Shown: positions 1-44,978 of the stretch, one piece after another
Layout of the letters: the number at the start of each line of letters is the position of its first letter
Numbering within the stretch: position 1 is the stretch's first letter
Origin: a virus
Length of the DNA stretch: 44,978 nucleotides
Reading direction: 5' to 3' (one strand)
Virus record (IMG/VR): IMGVR_UViG_3300006028_000016
Location: 1 to 44,978 of that record
The notes under the pieces: generated by a model
What the model was told of the DNA's origin: nothing
The model's input: the letters and a program-made list of their open reading frames with translations, nothing else
Databases searched by the model: none
Program-made: the position numbers and the translations under genes

Positions 1-1
1 G

Positions 2-271
2 ATTGCCGCCGAGGCCTCGGGCGTCACCGAGCAGACCTTCTACAACTGGGTTCGCCGCCACCGCGCCTTCCGCGAGCAGATCGAGCACGCGCACGCCGAG
101 GCCGAGGCAATCCTGATCGGCCGCGTCCAACAGGCCGCCGCCAAGGGGTCATGGCGCGCCGCCTGCTGGCTGCTGGAACGCGCCTGGCCGGAGCGCTGGG
201 CGCCCCTCGCCGATCGCGTGGCGCAGGACCGCGAGCTTGACCACGAACTGGACCAGCTGCTGGCCGAGTGA
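2..271 (+). CDS. Terminase small subunit, C-terminal part (gene split by window ends)
   Basis: This is the C-terminal 89 residues of a phage terminase small subunit, which binds the packaging site on phage DNA and recruits the large subunit. The first 24 codons lie at the other end of the window (TTG at 44864). Joining the ends at the 20-base overlap gives one uninterrupted 113-residue protein. Residues about 17-43 of the joined protein look like a helix-turn-helix (IAAEASGVTEQTFYNW), followed by an Ala/Glu/Arg-rich helical part. The stop overlaps the GTG of the large subunit by four bases. The family call rests on the HTH, the size and the position; I am fairly sure. Confidence 0.85.
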   Translation: MAAEASGVTEQTFYNWVRRHRAFREQIEHAHAEAEAILIGRVQQAAAKGSWRAACWLLERAWPERWAPLADRVAQDRELDHELDQLLAE

Positions 272-4408: not shown

Positions 4409-4498
4409 TCAGGCGACGGCGAGCAGCCGCAGCAGCAGCAGGACCAGAACGATGAACACGATCACGTATACGAGCAGGTACAGCGGGCCGGCGGGCAT
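4409..4498 (-). CDS. Possible 29-residue single-pass membrane microprotein
   Basis: An ATG on the minus strand opens a 29-residue frame: MPAGPLYLLVYVIVFIV, then LVLLLLRLLAVA. Almost the whole peptide is one hydrophobic helix with a single Arg near the end. A weak GAGGG lies just upstream and a stem-loop follows the stop. Composition strongly favours a real membrane peptide over chance, but the size makes the call tentative. Confidence 0.4.
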   Translation of the reverse strand: MPAGPLYLLVYVIVFIVLVLLLLRLLAVA

Positions 4499-35364: not shown

Positions 35365-36117
35365 TCATGCAGCGCTCTCGCGCAGCCGCTTGATGCGTCG
35401 TTCCGCTGTCCGTCGGGTGATGTTCCAGTGCTTGGCGAGCGCCGGTGCTTTCCAGTCCAGCAGTTCGGCGTCGGCGCGCCACCGCTCGAGTTCGGCATTG
35501 CTCGCTGCGGGCCGTCCGGCCGCTCCATTGCGAGCGAGGCGGTCGATGAGGTAGCGCCGCTCGGTGTCGTCCGCGATCTCACTGAGGGTTCGCTTAGCGA
35601 TCGCGTCGAGCTCTCGACGACGTGCTGTCGGGATGCGCCGCCGGCGACTCTCGCGGGCGTGCTCGTCGAATGTCATTCCGTGCTTGGCTTGCGCGCGCGC
35701 CCGCTCCGGGATCGGCGAGGCGCGCATCGCGCCGCTGTCCCGCAGCCACCCGAGATGCCTGGCGCGATCGAGCAGCGACTCACCGGTCGGCGAATGCCAC
35801 GCCGTTGCCGCTTCCGCCAACGGACGGCGATGTTCGTTGCTGGCGGATTTGTCCATCATCGGTGCCAATTCCTTGGCTCCTGCGTTGTAGGCCAGCACCC
35901 GCGAGACGTCCTCGTAGTGCATGCCGCAGGCGATCAGGAAATAGTCCAGCTCGGCTTCGCGCCATGCCTCGTGCCCGGTTGCCATGTGATAGTCGCGCCA
36001 CGCGCCCGACGTTGCGATGTCGACTACCGCGTCGGTGAGTTCGGCGACACGCCCGAGATTCTGAATGTGGCTCGTGAACGTCAGAACGCGCCGGCCATTG
36101 GGATCGACCAGGTTCAT
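35365..36117 (-). CDS. Partner protein of the HNH-helicase cassette, C-terminal HTH
   Basis: This 250-residue protein overlaps the helicase stop by four bases (ATGA) and so is coupled to it. I do not recognise a family. The N-terminal half is helical (RVAELTDAVVDIATSGAWRD, EAELDYFLIACGMHYEDV); the middle is Arg/Glu-rich (HARESRRRRIPTARRREL), and the end (DWKAPALAKHWNITRRTAER, then RIKRLRES) looks like a helix-turn-helix. No nuclease or NTPase motif is visible. It might regulate the cassette, recognise DNA for the helicase, or be an effector. Confidence 0.7.
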   Translation of the reverse strand: MNLVDPNGRRVLTFTSHIQNLGRVAELTDAVVDIATSGAWRDYHMATGHEAWREAELDYFLIACGMHYEDVSRVLAYNAGAKELAPMMDKSASNEHRRPLAEAATAWHSPTGESLLDRARHLGWLRDSGAMRASPIPERARAQAKHGMTFDEHARESRRRRIPTARRRELDAIAKRTLSEIADDTERRYLIDRLARNGAAGRPAASNAELERWRADAELLDWKAPALAKHWNITRRTAERRIKRLRESAA

Positions 36118-38177
36118 CCGACGCCTCGCATTCCGCGCGGATGCGCCTTGCCGGTCTGGCGGCAGTAGGCGGCGATATGGGCGACCTCGTGCTCGAGAAC
36201 CAGTTTCAGCCGTTCGGGCGGGGCGCTATCGCGACCACCGCCGCTCTTGATGCCCGCTGCGGTGTTGGCGCGACCCGCGAAAACGCCGATGGGAACGTCG
36301 CCGTTGACCGCCCACCACTTCTCGAGCTCGCGGATCTGCCCCATCGTGAGGCTGGAGCTTTCTTCGATCGACACGGGCCTGATGAAAGCGTCGTGCGTGG
36401 AGACGGCGCCGGCGTCGAATGGGCGTCGGCGCTCCTGCTCAGCGGCGATGTCACCCATTGCGGCCAGCACCCGAGCATGCAGGACCGTCGGCAGGTTGTA
36501 GCGCTCGAGAACCTCCGCGACCGCATGCAATTGCTCAGCGGTGAACGTGACATCACTGTCGCCCAGCGGCACCGTCACGCGTTCCGCGCCCGGTGTGACC
36601 GATTGGACGTGGTAGGCGACGTCGATCAGGCGCGGTTCGCGTTCAGTTGGAGCGTCGCGCTCTCGGAGGTCATCGGCACCGTCATCACCAATGGTGATCT
36701 CGTGACTGATTGGCGCGAGGTACTCCTTGAGCTTCTCGATCAGCACCGGGACGTCGGGCACGACGACCACTGCCGGGATGACCCGCCCGCGGTTGCGCTC
36801 GATCGCCGTGACGCGTTGAGCGCGGGCGACGACCTGGCGGACGTAGAGGTTCGTCAGCTTGTTGGTGGCGTAGCCGACGACGACGATGTCGGGACAGTCG
36901 TAGCCCTCGCCGGCCATGTCGACGGTGCACAGGACACCCACTCGGTCCGAGCGTCGGAACGCCTCGAGTGTGCGGGCGGCGTCGGGATCGTCGCTGACGG
37001 CGATCTCGGCCAGGGGCCGCAGACCGCGCGCATGCATCTGCTCGTTGACCTCGTTTTGAAAGAGCCGGGCGTCGGCCTGACGGGCGGCGACGATCAGCGC
37101 TTTGACGTGGTGGCCGCCGAGCGCGTCGTGCGCCTCCTGCAGTCGATCGAGGATGCTGCGGACGAACGCCTCCCGCCATGGGTGATGAGCGCCGAGTTCG
37201 CGCAACGTCGCACGCGCCGGCGCCTCATCCAGGTCGGCCATGTTGGAGTCGATCATCTCGAACTGAGCGGTGTCGAACAGCTCAACGCGCCCGTCGACGT
37301 GGCGGATGTCGATCGGCCGCAGCTCGCCCTCGCGGATGATCTGCTCGGCGGGGACGTTCCAGTCCTGCTCGGCCTCGAGGCGGTTGTCGCCGAGCGTGCG
37401 GTAGCGAACGGTGGAGATCCGCTCGTCGACGCGAGACCGCCACAGGGTGCCCGAGAGATTGAGGACTCCGGCGACGTTGAGGCCGACGTCGACCTCGCCC
37501 GCGAGCTCGGCGACATTGCGTGCCCACGCCGGGCGAGTACGACCCTCGCGCTCGCCGACGTGGTGGACCTCATCGAGTACCAGCAGCGTGCGCTTGGCGC
37601 GTGCAGCGTGACGATGCACGTTGAGGGTGTCGGCGTTCAGAGACTGGTAGGTCGTGACGACGCCGTCCTGCCCCGGGCGCTCGAGCTCGGCGCCGGGCTT
37701 GAGCTCAATGTGCCGGGCGCCGAACAGCGCGCCCGTCCACTGCTCCACGAGCGTGCGCCGCGGCGCGAGGACGACCATGCGGTCGATGACGTCGGCGTCG
37801 TGCAGCGCCTCGAACACGAGGCCGGTGAAGATCGTTTTGCCGGCGCCCGGGGCAGCGCTCAGGGTCGCGGCGCCATCGTTGATGATGCGCTTGACGATGG
37901 TGTCCAGTGCCGCGAGCTGCCACTCGCGCGGCGTGGTGCGCGTGTCCCGGACGTCCTGGGCGCCCTGTACGAGATTGCAGCGGGAGCACCACGCCTCAAG
38001 GTTGGACTCGACGAGCGCGCCGCCGTGGGTATGCGAGCGCAGATGCGCGACGTGGAAGGTGTCGAACTCGATCGACTTGCCGCAGCCGTCACGCTGGCAG
38101 ATGCCATTCGAGCGTTGATAGACGGACTCTCGCATCGCGCGAGAGGGCCGTTTGCGCGGCCGGTCTTGGGACTGCAT
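36114..38177 (-). CDS. HNH nuclease fused to SF2 helicase
   Basis: This 687-residue protein joins two domains. Residues about 15-75 are an HNH/zinc nuclease: C27 and C32, H45 (VAHLRSHTHGG), N59, C64-x2-C67-N68. Residues about 80-500 are a superfamily 2 helicase of the SSL2/restriction type: Walker A PGAGKT (110-115), DEVH box (202-205), SGT motif III (242-244), motif VI QVVARAQR (448-455). A C-terminal 180 residues is unknown and carries HEVAH (663-667). The ATG at 38177 was preferred over TTG at 38240 because the promoter and operator lie between them. Nuclease-helicase fusions of this kind are typical of phage defence; function here is inferred. Confidence 0.88.
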   Translation of the reverse strand: MQSQDRPRKRPSRAMRESVYQRSNGICQRDGCGKSIEFDTFHVAHLRSHTHGGALVESNLEAWCSRCNLVQGAQDVRDTRTTPREWQLAALDTIVKRIINDGAATLSAAPGAGKTIFTGLVFEALHDADVIDRMVVLAPRRTLVEQWTGALFGARHIELKPGAELERPGQDGVVTTYQSLNADTLNVHRHAARAKRTLLVLDEVHHVGEREGRTRPAWARNVAELAGEVDVGLNVAGVLNLSGTLWRSRVDERISTVRYRTLGDNRLEAEQDWNVPAEQIIREGELRPIDIRHVDGRVELFDTAQFEMIDSNMADLDEAPARATLRELGAHHPWREAFVRSILDRLQEAHDALGGHHVKALIVAARQADARLFQNEVNEQMHARGLRPLAEIAVSDDPDAARTLEAFRRSDRVGVLCTVDMAGEGYDCPDIVVVGYATNKLTNLYVRQVVARAQRVTAIERNRGRVIPAVVVVPDVPVLIEKLKEYLAPISHEITIGDDGADDLRERDAPTEREPRLIDVAYHVQSVTPGAERVTVPLGDSDVTFTAEQLHAVAEVLERYNLPTVLHARVLAAMGDIAAEQERRRPFDAGAVSTHDAFIRPVSIEESSSLTMGQIRELEKWWAVNGDVPIGVFAGRANTAAGIKSGGGRDSAPPERLKLVLEHEVAHIAAYCRQTGKAHPRGMRGVG

Positions 38178-38290
38178 GAGGGTTCCGTTCAGTTGAGGAT
38201 CGTGATGCCTGCGACAATAATACGCGAATTTTTGTCGCAAGTTACATTTGCCATATCGGCCCGGTGGCCTAGGAGCATGAGGGTTCCGTT
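38174..38290. repeat. 16-bp direct repeat flanking the cassette promoter
   Basis: GCATGAGGGTTCCGTT occurs at 38174-38189, covering the helicase start codon, and identically at 38275-38290. The copies are 101 bases apart and bracket the promoter. They may be leftover duplication from assembly of the cassette or a recombination site. Confidence 0.7.
38210..38239 (-). promoter_or_regulatory. Promoter and operator of the HNH-helicase cassette
   Basis: Within an AT-rich dip, TGCGACAA (38210-38217) and TTGTCGCA (38232-38239) form a perfect inverted repeat with centres 22 bases apart. On the minus strand a -10-like TATTAT falls between the arms, so binding there would block transcription. It lies 33 bases upstream of the helicase ATG. 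The binding protein is unknown; the HTH partner is a candidate. Confidence 0.5.
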
Positions 38291-38869: not shown

Positions 38870-39108
38870 CCATCAAAGCCCAAGAGTCCTACGACGCCGC
38901 GGTCGCCAGTCTCACCGCCACCATCGCGCACATCGACGCCGCCATCGCCGTGCTCAACGCCCCCGGGAAAGCCATCGGCTACGACGAGGGACTGCGCAGC
39001 GGGCAGATCGGGCAGGCCGTCGCCGTCCGCGTCCGCAACAGTCTCGCCGCCGCCCGGGAGGACCTTGCGCACCAGGCCGCGCAGATGATCCGCATGGAGC
39101 AGCCGTGA
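38866..39108 (+). CDS. Small helical protein
   Basis: This 80-residue protein is almost entirely helical (QESYDAAVASLTATIAHIDA, NSLAAAREDLAHQAAQMIRM). ATGA overlap with RusA and GTGA overlap with the next gene. No family recognised. Confidence 0.6.
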   Translation: MTIKAQESYDAAVASLTATIAHIDAAIAVLNAPGKAIGYDEGLRSGQIGQAVAVRVRNSLAAAREDLAHQAAQMIRMEQP

Positions 39109-39548
39109 CCGCCGACCGGCCCGAGGGCGCGTGCCCCGGGTACTGCTGCGCCGCGTTCACCTACCCGCGGACGCTCAGCCAGATTCGTCGCGACCCGCCC
39201 GCCTACGACGGGGAGATGATCGCCGACATGCTCATCCCGCTGACGCCGAAGCAGGCGCGGGAGCGCTATGAGCGGTTCGGCGGGCCCGCGGAGCGCTCCG
39301 GGTTCCGCTGGAAGTCCCGCGGGCACCACTTCACCTGTCGCCACTGGGATGAGGAGACGCGGCTGTGCACGGTCTACGAGGACCGGCCGGCGATGTGCCG
39401 CGACTACCCGTACGGGCAGGAGTGCCAGCACGGGTGCGGGCGCGTGGGCGGGCTGCCGTCGGAGGAGCGGATGCGGATTCGCGAGGAGCGGTGGGCGAAC
39501 CAGTGGAAGGCGTACGAGGCGCCCAAGCCCGCGGAGAGGCTTCCGTGA
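39105..39548 (+). CDS. Cys-cluster (YkgJ-like) protein 1
   Basis: This 147-residue protein has CPGYCC near the start (10-15) and FTCRHWDEETRLCTVYED, RPAMCRDYPYG at about 75-105, followed by CQHGC. This is the metal or Fe-S cluster-binding pattern of the YkgJ/CxxCxxCC family. A second copy of the same kind is encoded at 44368-44844. Function unknown. GTG start in a GTGA overlap. Confidence 0.72.
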   Translation: MTADRPEGACPGYCCAAFTYPRTLSQIRRDPPAYDGEMIADMLIPLTPKQARERYERFGGPAERSGFRWKSRGHHFTCRHWDEETRLCTVYEDRPAMCRDYPYGQECQHGCGRVGGLPSEERMRIREERWANQWKAYEAPKPAERLP

Positions 39549-39776: not shown

Positions 39777-40187
39777 GTGCGCGCTCTCATCCTGCCGATC
39801 CTCGCGAGCCTCACCGGCTGCGCCCCCATCGTCGACGAGCTCGCCCCCACCGGCGCGCCGCGCCCCGAGAAACCCACCCACCACTGGCGGCCACGACGCC
39901 GGCGGCCCGACCCGCCGTTTCACACCGCGGTCGCGTCCTTCTACGGGTACGGCGGCGCGACCACCGGCGCCTGCGGTGCCCTGCAGAGCAACGGGGTCGC
40001 CAGCCGCACGCTGCCGTGCTGGACGCGGCTGACGATGTGCGCGGCCAGGTGCGCGGTCGCGGTCGTCGACGACCGCGGACCCTACGTGGGCGGCCGGGAT
40101 TTTGACCTGTCGGTCGGGCTGGCGGAGTCGATCCGGTTCCCGATGAGCGCCGGTGTCGCGCCGGTCCGGTGGCGTCTCGCGCCATGA
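39777..40187 (+). CDS. RlpA-like double-psi beta-barrel lipoprotein
   Basis: This 136-residue protein begins with a lipoprotein signal, MRALILPILASLTGC, with Cys15 in an LTGC lipobox. After a Pro/Arg-rich spacer it has a double-psi beta barrel: VASFYGYGGATTGACGA, SRTLPCWTRLTMC and DDRGPYVGGRDFDLS, GLAESIRFPMSAGVAPVRW. RlpA-like and barwin-like domains bind or cut peptidoglycan glycan strands. It lies directly before the excisionase, outside the lysis cassette, so expression in the lysogen to alter the wall or block superinfection is a reasonable guess. GTG start. Confidence 0.75.
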   Translation: MRALILPILASLTGCAPIVDELAPTGAPRPEKPTHHWRPRRRRPDPPFHTAVASFYGYGGATTGACGALQSNGVASRTLPCWTRLTMCAARCAVAVVDDRGPYVGGRDFDLSVGLAESIRFPMSAGVAPVRWRLAP

Positions 40188-40465
40188 CCGGCCGGCTGCT
40201 CACCGGCCGCGAGGTCGCCGACCGGCTCGGATTGAGCACCAAGACCGTGCTGCGCTGGGCGCAAACCGGGGAACTCCCAGCCATCCGCCTGTCAAACCGG
40301 GCGATCCGGTTCCGCGAGGACGAGCTCGACGAGTGGCTGAGAGCGCGGGCGACGCCGTACCGAGCAGCGCCAACCGTCGGTGGCGCCGCCCGCACCGGCA
40401 GGCTACATTCCCTCGTGCCAACCGTCGTTGATACCGAGGAGCAGCCATCATGGCCCGAGCACTGA
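40184..40465 (+). CDS. xis: Excisionase / MerR-like HTH protein
   Basis: This 93-residue protein has a winged helix of the HTH_17/excisionase type at about 6-55: LLTGREVADRLGLSTKTVLR, WAQTGELPAIRLSNRAIRF, REDELDEWL. It overlaps the integrase by 16 bases, which supports a recombination directionality factor. ATGA overlap with the lipoprotein gene. The start at 40184 begins the conserved domain. Confidence 0.78.
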   Translation: MTGRLLTGREVADRLGLSTKTVLRWAQTGELPAIRLSNRAIRFREDELDEWLRARATPYRAAPTVGGAARTGRLHSLVPTVVDTEEQPSWPEH

Positions 40466-41541
40466 CCGGGAGCGTCTACCGCGCCAAGGGCGGATACGGG
40501 ATCCGCTGGGAAGAGAACGGCAAACGCACCCAATACACCCCCCGGCCGTCATTCGCGACCAAGACCGCCGCGCGCGACTGGTTCGCCGAGACCGTCAAAC
40601 CCCGCCTGCGCGCCACCAGCCCCGCGCCACCCAACCCCGACCTGTCGTTCGGGGAGTTCTGCGACCGGTTCCTGGCGCGGCAGACCACCGCGCCCAGCAC
40701 CATCAACACGCTCCGCGACCGGCTCGCCCCGGCTCGAGGCACGTTCGGGGCATGGACACTCGCCGAGCTCGAGTACGCCGGCGCCGACATCGCCGCGTGG
40801 CGCGCCAGCCTCCCCGAAGGCTCCCGGTTCCGGCACACCGCCGCCTTGCGGCAGTGCCTCGCCGCCGCTGTCCGCTGGCGCTACCTCACCCGCAATCCCG
40901 CCGTCGACGCCGGATCCAACCCCAAGCCCCGGTCCAAGGAGATCGACCCGTTCACCCCCGGCGAGGTCGACGCGATTCTCGCCGAACTGGCCGCCCCGGA
41001 TCTGCAGCTGGTCACCTTCGCCGTCGAGACCGGGCTGCGGCCCGAGGAGTGGTGCGCGCTGGAGCGCCCCGATCATGACCGCCGGCACCGCCGGATCCTG
41101 GTGCAGCGCAAGTTCGCTAAGGGGCGTCTCACCCCCTACCCGAAGACGAGCCGCCGCAGCGTGCCGCTGACCGCCCGCGCGCACGCCGCCTTGGCTGAGT
41201 TGCCGCCGCGGATCGACACGCCCATCCTGTTTTCCGCCGCGCAGGGCGGCCGCCTCGCGCTGGATAATTGGCGGTCACGCGTCTGGTATCCCGCGCTCGG
41301 GCTCGCCGGCGTCCGCCAGCGCGGGCCCTACGCGCTACGCCACACGTTCGCCACCGAGGCGCTGGCCGCGGGCGTGTCGACGTTCGAGCTGGCGCGGGTG
41401 ATGGGCACGTCGCTGGAGATGATCGACCAGCACTACGGGCATCTGGCGCACGACTCCGAGGACTCGATCCGGGCTCGGCTGGATGCGCGTACCGCGCGAA
41501 ATGGCGTCCAATTGGCGTCCAGCGAGGACGGCGACCGGTGA
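40450..41541 (+). CDS. int: Tyrosine integrase
   Basis: This 363-residue enzyme recombines attP with attB. The N-terminal arm-binding domain (1-60) has SVYRAKGGYGIRWEENGKRT; the core-binding domain follows (about 65-165). Catalytic residues are R197 (GLRPEE), K232 (PKTSRRSV), R297 with H298 (YALRHTFA) and nucleophile Y329 (DQHYGHL). The usual H/W position two turns earlier is T320 (MGT). AGGAGC lies ahead of the ATG. Its last codons contain two of the 11-base arm repeats of the attP that follows. Confidence 0.95.
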   Translation: MARALTGSVYRAKGGYGIRWEENGKRTQYTPRPSFATKTAARDWFAETVKPRLRATSPAPPNPDLSFGEFCDRFLARQTTAPSTINTLRDRLAPARGTFGAWTLAELEYAGADIAAWRASLPEGSRFRHTAALRQCLAAAVRWRYLTRNPAVDAGSNPKPRSKEIDPFTPGEVDAILAELAAPDLQLVTFAVETGLRPEEWCALERPDHDRRHRRILVQRKFAKGRLTPYPKTSRRSVPLTARAHAALAELPPRIDTPILFSAAQGGRLALDNWRSRVWYPALGLAGVRQRGPYALRHTFATEALAAGVSTFELARVMGTSLEMIDQHYGHLAHDSEDSIRARLDARTARNGVQLASSEDGDR

Positions 41542-41764
41542 CCGGAAGCAGAAAAACCCGCTGTTTGCAGCGAGTTCATGGAGCGCGCCCGGAGAGATTC
41601 GAACTCCCGACCTTCGGTTCCGTAGACCAATTTCCGCGTGCACCCACGATTCTCACAAGCACCCAGAAGCGCCGGGTTTGCAGGACATTCCATGACCGCG
41701 CGACGTTGGCGCCTGTAGCTGCGGGGGCTCGCGGGCCGGCTCAATTGGCGTTCAATTGGCGTCG
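41499..41764. other. Phage attachment site attP with arm repeats
   Basis: The site has three parts. Tandem 11-base repeats AAATGGCGTCC-AATTGGCGTCC lie at 41499-41520, inside the integrase 3' end. The tRNA-like core is at 41584-41630. A second tandem pair AATTGGCGTTC-AATTGGCGTCG is at 41743-41764. All four repeats have the same orientation and spacing. This is the layout of arm-type integrase sites on both sides of a core. The 229-base gap between int and the next gene holds nothing else that I can see. Confidence 0.8.
41584..41630 (-). other. attP core: 3' half of a tRNA-Arg(ACG) gene
   Basis: Read on the minus strand, it gives the anticodon stem TTGGT, loop CTACGGA with anticodon ACG, stem ACCGA, variable bases AGGTC, T arm GGGAG-TTCGAAT-CTCTC and acceptor strand CGGGCGC plus G. 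The D arm and 5' acceptor strand are absent and CCA is not encoded. Integration at the host tRNA-Arg would be seamless because the phage restores the 3' half. Confidence 0.88.
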
Positions 41765-41770
41765 AGGGCG

Positions 41771-42130
41771 ATGAACCGCGCCGACGCTCAGCGGCTCGTC
41801 GACCGCCTCCGCGAGGTCCGCGAGGACCGCGGGGCCACCGCCAACGAGGCGGCCGTCGCCGCCCGCAAGGCCGCCAGCCTCGTCGACCGGTTCCAGCTCA
41901 ACCAGCCGCCCCCGCGGCACCGGCAGGCGCCCGCGGGTCCGCCGCCGCGCCGCCGCGCCCGACCGCGGCCCGTTCCCGTCGACGAGGTGCTGCGGATGAG
42001 CGACCTGGTGTTCGCCCGCGCGTTCGTGCCCGACTGGGAGTTTGACCCGCGGACCGGGAAGGGCTCAGACAACGTCCGCGTCGTCCGCTACCAGGACCAC
42101 GCCAACTGGAGGATCGAGGTCGACCCGTGA
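41771..42130 (+). CDS. Small basic early protein
   Basis: This 119-residue protein has an N-terminal helix (DAQRLVDRLREVREDRGATA), a Pro/Arg-rich middle and an aromatic C-terminus (WEFDPRTGKGSDNVRVVRY). A GAGGG site precedes the ATG, which lies just after the attP right arm. Unknown function. Confidence 0.6.
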   Translation: MNRADAQRLVDRLREVREDRGATANEAAVAARKAASLVDRFQLNQPPPRHRQAPAGPPPRRRARPRPVPVDEVLRMSDLVFARAFVPDWEFDPRTGKGSDNVRVVRYQDHANWRIEVDP

Positions 42131-44056: not shown

Positions 44057-44371
44057 ATGATCGCCCCATGCGCCGAGCCCGGCTGCCCGCAGCCAGCTGC
44101 CTACCGCGGCCGCTGCCGCGCCCACGCCCGCGTCTCTGAACGCGGCATTCTCCGCGCCGGATATCACCTCTACCGGACCAAACGCTGGCGGCTGACCCGC
44201 GAACGCCAGCTACGCGACCACCCATTGTGCGAGTGCGGCGCCATCGCCGAGCACGTCCACCACCGCACCGACCTGGCCGCCGGAGGCGCAGCCTTCGACC
44301 CCGCCAACCTGCAGTCGCTGTGCGCCTCCTGCCACAGCCGCGAGACACGGCAACGCCAGGTGAACGCATGA
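44057..44371 (+). CDS. HNH endonuclease (packaging-associated)
   Basis: This 104-residue protein has an N-terminal zinc pattern (CAEPGCPQPA...GRCRAH) and an HNH core: HPLCECGAIAEHVHHRTDL, then FDPANLQSLCASCHSRET. It lies just before the terminase small subunit, as in many HK97-type cos phages where a small HNH enzyme is needed with the terminase for end cleavage. Its stop overlaps the next ATG by four bases. Confidence 0.88.
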   Translation: MIAPCAEPGCPQPAAYRGRCRAHARVSERGILRAGYHLYRTKRWRLTRERQLRDHPLCECGAIAEHVHHRTDLAAGGAAFDPANLQSLCASCHSRETRQRQVNA

Positions 44372-44844
44372 CCGGATTCCGCAGCGGCGCGACGACCTGC
44401 CCCGGCCAGTGCTGCGCCGTCCTACAGCTATCCGGCACGCTCGACGAGCTACGGGAGGCCGCCCCCATCATGCTCGACGGACCCTCCGTCCTGGCCATGA
44501 TCGAACCGATCAGACGCGACGACGCGATCAAGCGCAGCCTCCAGCATGGCGCCGACCCGACCGCCATCAGCCAGGCCACGCCCGGGCGGCTGTTCACCTG
44601 CCGCCACTGGGACACCGAGACGCACCTGTGCCGCGTCTACGAGCAGCGGCCCACGATGTGCCGCGACTATCCCTACGGCGAGGCGTGCGCCCACTGCGGC
44701 CTCACCATGGGCGTCAGCCCCCTCGACCGCGCGCAGCAGCGCGCCAGGCGCGAGGGGGAGGGTCGCATGCGCGCGCATGACCCAGCAGGGGCCGCCTGGG
44801 GGCTGCCTGCGAAAAAAACCCCGCGCATGCGGGGGCAAGCCTAA
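44368..44844 (+). CDS. Cys-cluster (YkgJ-like) protein 2
   Basis: This 158-residue protein shares the pattern of the one at 39105-39548: CPGQCCAVLQLS at the start, then FTCRHWDTETHLCRVYEQ, RPTMCRDYPYG and ACAHCG. Between them lies a helical insert of similar length. A metal or Fe-S cluster is likely; function unknown. It sits between HNH nuclease and terminase small subunit. Confidence 0.72.
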   Translation: MTGFRSGATTCPGQCCAVLQLSGTLDELREAAPIMLDGPSVLAMIEPIRRDDAIKRSLQHGADPTAISQATPGRLFTCRHWDTETHLCRVYEQRPTMCRDYPYGEACAHCGLTMGVSPLDRAQQRARREGEGRMRAHDPAGAAWGLPAKKTPRMRGQA

Positions 44845-44863: not shown

Positions 44864-44954
44864 TTGGCCAGCAAATACACCCCGGAGACGCGCGAGGCGA
44901 TCTGTCGCCTCATCAAATTCGGCGCCAGCGCCAAGATTGCCGCCGAGGCCTCGG
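44864..44954 (+). CDS. terS: Terminase small subunit, N-terminal part (gene split by window ends)
   Basis: TTG at 44864, ten bases after GAGGAGG (44849-44855), opens ASKYTPETREAICRLIKFGA and then SAKIAAEAS. The codons continue in frame at position 21 of the window after the shared 20 bases. The N-terminal helix leads into the helix-turn-helix of the DNA-binding domain. Codons after 44954 in this window are a fold-back artefact and not part of the protein. Confidence 0.85.
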
Positions 44955-44978
44955 CGGCAATCTTGGCGCTGGCGCCGA
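44919..44978. repeat. 60-base perfect inverted repeat at window end (fold-back)
   Basis: Bases 44919-44948 are exactly reverse-complementary to 44949-44978, without a loop. The centre is a natural 12-base palindrome, CCGAGGCCTCGG, that is also present at 9-20. Outside it the true sequence continues as at position 21. The last 24 bases are therefore most simply an inverted chimera at a palindrome. Confidence 0.9.

What the first reader, a model, noticed from the sequence alone, without database searches (positions are those of the whole stretch)
41499..41764. attP with direct 11-bp arm repeats on both sides of a tRNA-Arg(ACG) core
Four copies of A-A-[AT]-T-G-G-C-G-T-[CT]-[CG] in two tandem pairs flank a 47-base tRNA 3' half. 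Two copies overlap the end of int, so coding sequence doubles as arm site. It identifies the likely attB and shows the genome is in the excised state.
Basis: seen in the sequence. Interest (0 to 1): 0.65.

Follow-up and report, generated by a model that had tools for sequence, protein, structure and literature searches.

The report
Phage attachment site targeting tRNA-Arg
This is the docking site a soil-bacterium phage uses to insert itself into its host's tRNA-Arg gene: an ordinary, complete example of a well-known design, with the probable host group and landing site now identified.

Summary
Four copies of AA[A/T]TGGCGT[C/T][C/G] sit at 41499, 41510, 41743 and 41754 and nowhere else in the window (about 0.07 expected). 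They form two tandem pairs around a tRNA-Arg(ACG) 3' half; the left pair lies inside the end of int. A phage with a 76% identical integrase keeps the core and the distances (pair to pair 244 bp) but has changed all four arm copies in concert to AATTGGCC. An integrated element with a 48% identical integrase has attL (whole tRNA) and attR (3' half) 58.5 kb apart, each with one pair of a third arm word. The contig ends join in frame within a small-terminase-like ORF, so the sequenced genome is unintegrated. Paired direct arm sites around a tRNA core are standard (CrimD, Giles, L5, Omega); P2 also has an arm pair inside the end of int. It is a new member of a known kind. Side result: an exact repeat at lag 11 bp recurs beside 35 of 73 related integrases (1.8 expected), with family-specific words.

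The parts
40169..40465 (+). HTH_17/AlpA-like protein, likely recombination directionality factor (excisionase)
   Evidence: PF12728 1.5e-15; phrog_66 excisionase and transcriptional regulator 3.8e-14; position just upstream of int
40450..41541 (+). tyrosine integrase, 363 aa, with N-terminal arm-binding domain
   Evidence: PF00589 2.7e-10; model with beta-beta-beta-alpha N-domain; fold matches Tn1549 Int, XerA, lambda Int
41499..41509 (+). arm site 1, AAATGGCGTCC, inside int
41510..41520 (+). arm site 2, AATTGGCGTCC, inside int
41555..41576 (+). imperfect hairpin, likely int terminator, between left arm pair and core
   Evidence: read directly; perfect inverted repeat AAAACCCGC...GCGGGTTTT at the same place in L002
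41582..41628 (-). attP common core: 3' half of tRNA-Arg(ACG); 45-47 bp identical to host tRNA genes
41619..41625 (-). anticodon loop CTACGGA, predicted crossover region
   Evidence: flanked by anticodon-stem inverted repeat; attR-type fragments of other elements match the tRNA only from about here onward
41743..41753 (+). arm site 3, AATTGGCGTTC
41754..41764 (+). arm site 4, AATTGGCGTCG, just before the next ORF (ATG at 41771)

Best explanation
41499-41764 is a complete attP of a temperate actinobacterial phage. The integrase's catalytic part binds the anticodon-stem inverted repeat of the core and exchanges strands in the anticodon loop with the matching host tRNA-Arg(ACG). Its small N-terminal domains hold two tandem pairs of arm sites, each pair one helical turn (11 bp) apart, centred about 112 bp on the int side and 132 bp on the far side of the crossover. 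Host-protein bending would bring arms and core together. Integration leaves a whole tRNA gene at attL (host 5' half plus phage 3' half) next to int, and a 3'-half remnant at attR. The HTH_17 protein encoded just before int is the likely directionality factor for excision. Shown by sequence: the sites, core identity, conserved geometry, concerted arm change, an integrated relative, the unintegrated state. Inferred: protein binding, crossover point, bending, RDF role, host.
For: Four unique 11-mer copies in the right places. A 41-base stretch of the core exactly matched in 21 loci from a collection of 84,980 species genomes, mostly named Solirubrobacterales; 16 carry the intact tRNA-Arg(ACG). 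L002 (76% int identity): same core, distances 113/131/244 bp against 112.5/131.5/244 bp here, all four arm copies changed together. G001 contig: attL (intact tRNA, arm pair TTTGGGTCGCTAGTGGGTCGC) and attR (3' half, TTTGGGTCGCTATTGGGTCGC) 58,475 bp apart, int 48% identical, far arm 132.5 bp from the crossover. Further family members have a lag-11 pair between int and one of several tRNAs. N-domain fold, RDF candidate, unintegrated genome.
Against: No binding or recombination experiment. No lysogen of this very phage was found: the closest integrated integrase in 232 genomes of the order is about 50% identical. attP has one mismatch to the host anticodon stem at 41629 (TTGGT against TCGGT), at the edge of the core.
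Confidence: 0.94

Rival explanations
1. The core is a true attP, but the repeats bind another protein (directionality factor or repressor), not the integrase N-domain.
For: RDF sites are also direct repeats about one helical turn apart (PMC7498355); no footprint exists here.
Against: The repeats are at the outer ends on both sides of the core, the place of integrase arm sites in P2, where the annotated Int arm sites have the same lag 11 and a TGTGG word; the P2 Cox site lies between core and arm instead.
Confidence: 0.05
2. The window is an integrated prophage end (attL or attR with host DNA on one side).
For: A tRNA half next to int is what attL/attR remnants look like.
Against: The tRNA lacks its 5' half and arm pairs are present on both sides; terminase, portal and capsid genes follow on through the in-frame join of the contig ends.
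Confidence: 0.02
3. The repeats are a chance or coding-derived duplication without function.
For: Half of them lie in coding sequence; a 6-mer version of the layout occurs in 2% of shuffled windows.
Against: L002 keeps position and spacing to within a base pair while the word changes in all four copies; same layout in other families.
Confidence: 0.01

Closest known systems
Coliphage P2 attP
   Same: Two arm sites, each a tandem pair at lag 11 with a TGTGG word (P' CTGTGGACACTGTGTGGACACTC; P TGTGGTCAATGTGTGGACG), flanking the core; the P' pair lies inside the 3' end of int
   Different: Core is not annotated as a tRNA; IHF and Cox sites are annotated there, none identified here; integrase similarity detected only in the catalytic part
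Mycobacteriophage attP sites (Cluster J Omega/BAKA; Cluster K CrimD and Pixie; Giles; L5)
   Same: Pairs of 10-11 bp arm-type repeats flank a tRNA or tmRNA 3' core; in Cluster J attP lies 3' of int, about 100 bp away, with a 44 bp tRNA-Leu core and HTH proteins upstream of int as candidate RDFs (PMC3203893, PMC3706429)
   Different: Different arm word, host and tRNA; CrimD pairs are inverted relative to each other; L5 has extra arm sites; best-listed integrases in the phage collection are about 26-32% identical
IMG/VR contig 3300047160_006224 (L002)
   Same: 76% identical integrase, same core, same geometry
   Different: Arm word AATTGGCC[GA] instead of AATTGGCGTCC

Membership tests
Lambda-type (heterobivalent) tyrosine integrase | Catalytic tyrosine-recombinase domain with R..K..R..Y | tested here: met
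   PF00589 2.7e-10; R197, K232, R297 invariant and Y329 nearly invariant in A1. The two active-site histidine positions read Y294 and T320.
Lambda-type (heterobivalent) tyrosine integrase | N-terminal arm-binding domain (three-stranded sheet plus helix) | tested here: met
   Model: strands 7-12, 15-22, 26-29, helix 38-55; whole model matches full-length lambda Int; PF14657 in 5 of 13 relatives but not in the window protein itself
Lambda-type attP | Arm sites on both sides of a core identical to attB | tested here: met
tRNA-targeting attP | Core equals a host tRNA 3' half so that integration restores the tRNA | tested here: met
   45-47 bp identity to host tRNA-Arg(ACG); an integrated relative has an intact tRNA at attL and a 3' half at attR
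P2/L5-type paired arms | Each arm a direct tandem pair, same word on both sides | tested here: met
   P2 yardstick; L5 from PMC3203893
Lambda-type attP | Directionality factor acting at att | not testable with these tools
   Candidate gene 40169-40465 only
Lambda-type attP | Host bending-protein sites between arms and core | not tested
   No motif model for actinobacterial IHF was used; GTTTGCAG between core and far arm is shared with L002 and L019 but unassigned
Lambda-type attP | Integrase binding and recombination in vitro or in vivo | not testable with these tools
   needs bench work

The most novel reading that the evidence does not exclude
Tyrosine integrases of this broad group read arm sites as tandem pairs at a fixed 11 bp lag, each word having a near-constant TGG part and a variable part set by a few residues of the third N-domain strand, so that arm sites could be predicted from sequence and attP found without knowing the host.
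Probability: 0.25. Interest if true: 0.45.

Novelty: new member of a known kind. Interest (0 to 1): 0.22.

Why it matters
It assigns an uncultivated phage to Solirubrobacterales-type soil actinobacteria and names its landing gene, in a group for which my paper search found only two papers, neither about integration by title. It supplies a natural series (same core, same geometry, changed arm word) for studying how an integrase and its four arm sites change together. The lag-11 regularity offers a cheap way to locate attP sites beside integrase genes.

Tried and rejected
attL/attR reading of the window rejected (arms on both sides; in-frame join of contig ends). Chance repeats rejected. Folding the tRNA half gave nothing useful (z 1.68). 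DNA search of the phage collection gave only short matches of 31-41 bp at the core. Pattern GGTTCCGTAGACCAAT in viral contigs gave 16 loci, none with the core 34-mer or a detectable integrase relative; not followed further. Accessions tried for Omega and L5 were not in the collection, so these rest on papers. Lambda shows no exact repeat of 6 or more bases at lags 8-13 around its arms, so the lag-11 rule is not universal. Pair-to-pair distances in intact attP sites (201-257 bp) showed no evident helical phase, judged by eye only.

Full report
WHAT IS THERE. The 11-mer AA[AT]TGGCGT[CT][CG] occurs four times in the window, at 41499, 41510, 41743 and 41754, all on the + strand, with about 0.07 expected by composition. 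Each pair has a start-to-start spacing of exactly 11 bp. Between the pairs, on the minus strand, is the 3' half of a tRNA with anticodon ACG (Rfam tRNA, 24.4 bits, 41584-41641); no complete tRNA is found. The left pair lies within the last 15 codons of int (40450-41541). The right pair ends a few bases before the ATG of the next ORF (41771).

HOST SITE. A 41-base stretch of the core was sought in a collection of 84,980 species genomes: 21 loci, mostly named Solirubrobacterales, the rest loosely named actinobacterial or unclassified MAGs. Sixteen carry a complete tRNA-Arg(ACG) whose 3' half equals the window; the others hold only the 3' half or are cut by the locus edge. Identity runs from 41582 or 41584 to 41628, 45-47 bp.

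RELATIVES. L002, an IMG/VR contig with a 76% identical integrase, has the same core and a perfect hairpin where the window has an imperfect one. Its arm pairs lie 113 and 131 bp from the anticodon-loop centre, 244 bp apart; the window has 112.5, 131.5 and 244. Yet all four copies read AATTGGCC[GA] instead of AATTGGCGTCC: the first half is kept, the second is changed in concert. In one Solirubrobacterales MAG contig (JAFAYP010000573.1) an element with a 48% identical integrase lies between an intact tRNA-Arg(ACG) and a second 3' half, 58,475 bp apart. The attL side carries TTTGGGTCGCTAGTGGGTCGC and the attR side TTTGGGTCGCTATTGGGTCGC, again lag 11, with the far pair 132.5 bp from the crossover. 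I did not check whether that element is a phage or another mobile element. Further relatives sit at other tRNAs, each with its own lag-11 word beside int.

UNINTEGRATED GENOME. The first 20 bases recur at 44935-44954. Joining there gives an open frame across the join containing an HTH (KIAAEASGVTEQTFYNWVRRH) that looks like a small terminase subunit (inference), followed by large terminase, portal and major capsid genes. Phage DNA therefore lies on both sides of attP. Virion DNA and excised DNA cannot be told apart from the sequence.

MECHANISM. The integrase model has a beta-beta-beta-alpha N-domain (residues 7-55) followed by core-binding and catalytic domains, matching Tn1549 Int, XerA and lambda Int structures. 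Overall pTM is modest (0.54), which I attribute to flexibly linked domains. By the established lambda-type mechanism, N-domains hold arm sites while the catalytic parts exchange strands in the core. The attR-type fragments in L006, L009, L019 and L024 match the host tRNA only from at or within a few bases of the anticodon loop onward, which points to crossover in that loop. The gene at 40169-40465 is the likely directionality factor.

COMPARISON. Papers describe pairs of arm-type repeats flanking tRNA or tmRNA cores in CrimD, Giles and L5 (PMC3203893), Cluster J phages (PMC3706429) and others (PMC10865867). In P2 the annotated Int arm sites show lag 11 and a TGTGG word, and the P' pair lies inside int. 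Every feature of the finding, including coding overlap, thus has a precedent. PMC3203893 also already proposed that N-domain residues change together with arm sequences.

WIDER REGULARITY. Among 73 non-redundant loci with integrases related to this one (down to about 24% identity), an exact repeat of 8 or more bases at lag 11 lies near the int 3' end in 35, against 1.8 in shuffles; other lags from 7 to 20 give 0-11, with 9, 10, 12 and 15 also raised (coding periodicity may explain 9, 12 and 15). The same 7-mer in two lag-11 pairs 120-330 bp apart occurs in 7 loci, against none in shuffles, none in upstream control regions, and one locus at any other lag from 8 to 20 (lag 12). Words vary, but most keep TGG. 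In five integrases with word GGGCCAC the residue four before the conserved F35 is R, and I saw no R there in the other readable cases (by eye; three of the five are close relatives): a lead only. Lambda does not show an exact repeat of this kind.

VERDICT. Observation confirmed, interpretation supported; an ordinary though well-preserved member of a known kind.

Noticed in passing
window 44919-44978 and 1-20: The last 60 bases are a perfect palindrome whose inner part holds the 20 bases of window 1-20; probably a fold-back assembly artefact at the join of a circular contig, since a small-terminase-like ORF reads through the join in frame.
   Followed up: partly
window 40450-41541 (integrase residues 294 and 320): The active-site histidine positions (HxxR and GH in P2 Int) read Y294xxR and GT320 here; Y294 is invariant and T320 nearly invariant in the 13-member family.
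   Followed up: no
window 36114-38240, minus strand: One 708-aa ORF joins an HNH nuclease domain to a ResIII/DEAD helicase and has an HEVAH (HExxH) motif near its C-terminus; it runs opposite to int and most neighbouring genes.
   Followed up: partly
window 39105-39548 and 44371-44844: Two CxxCxxCC (PF03692, putative zinc/iron-chelating) genes bracket the integration region.
   Followed up: no
L019 about 4444-4466; L010 and L016 about 100 bp from the tRNA: Other lag-11 pairs (GGGACA words) lie about 100 bp from the same tRNA-Arg, suggesting further elements integrated at this gene, in L019 next to the first element.
   Followed up: no
window about 41674-41681; L002 about 1164; L019 about 4616: GTTTGCAG between core and far arm is shared by three attP/attR sequences; possibly a bending-protein or RDF site.
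   Followed up: no
L017 6526-6900: In the integrated relative an extra stretch lies between int and the attL arm pair, so arm overlap with int is not a fixed feature.
   Followed up: no
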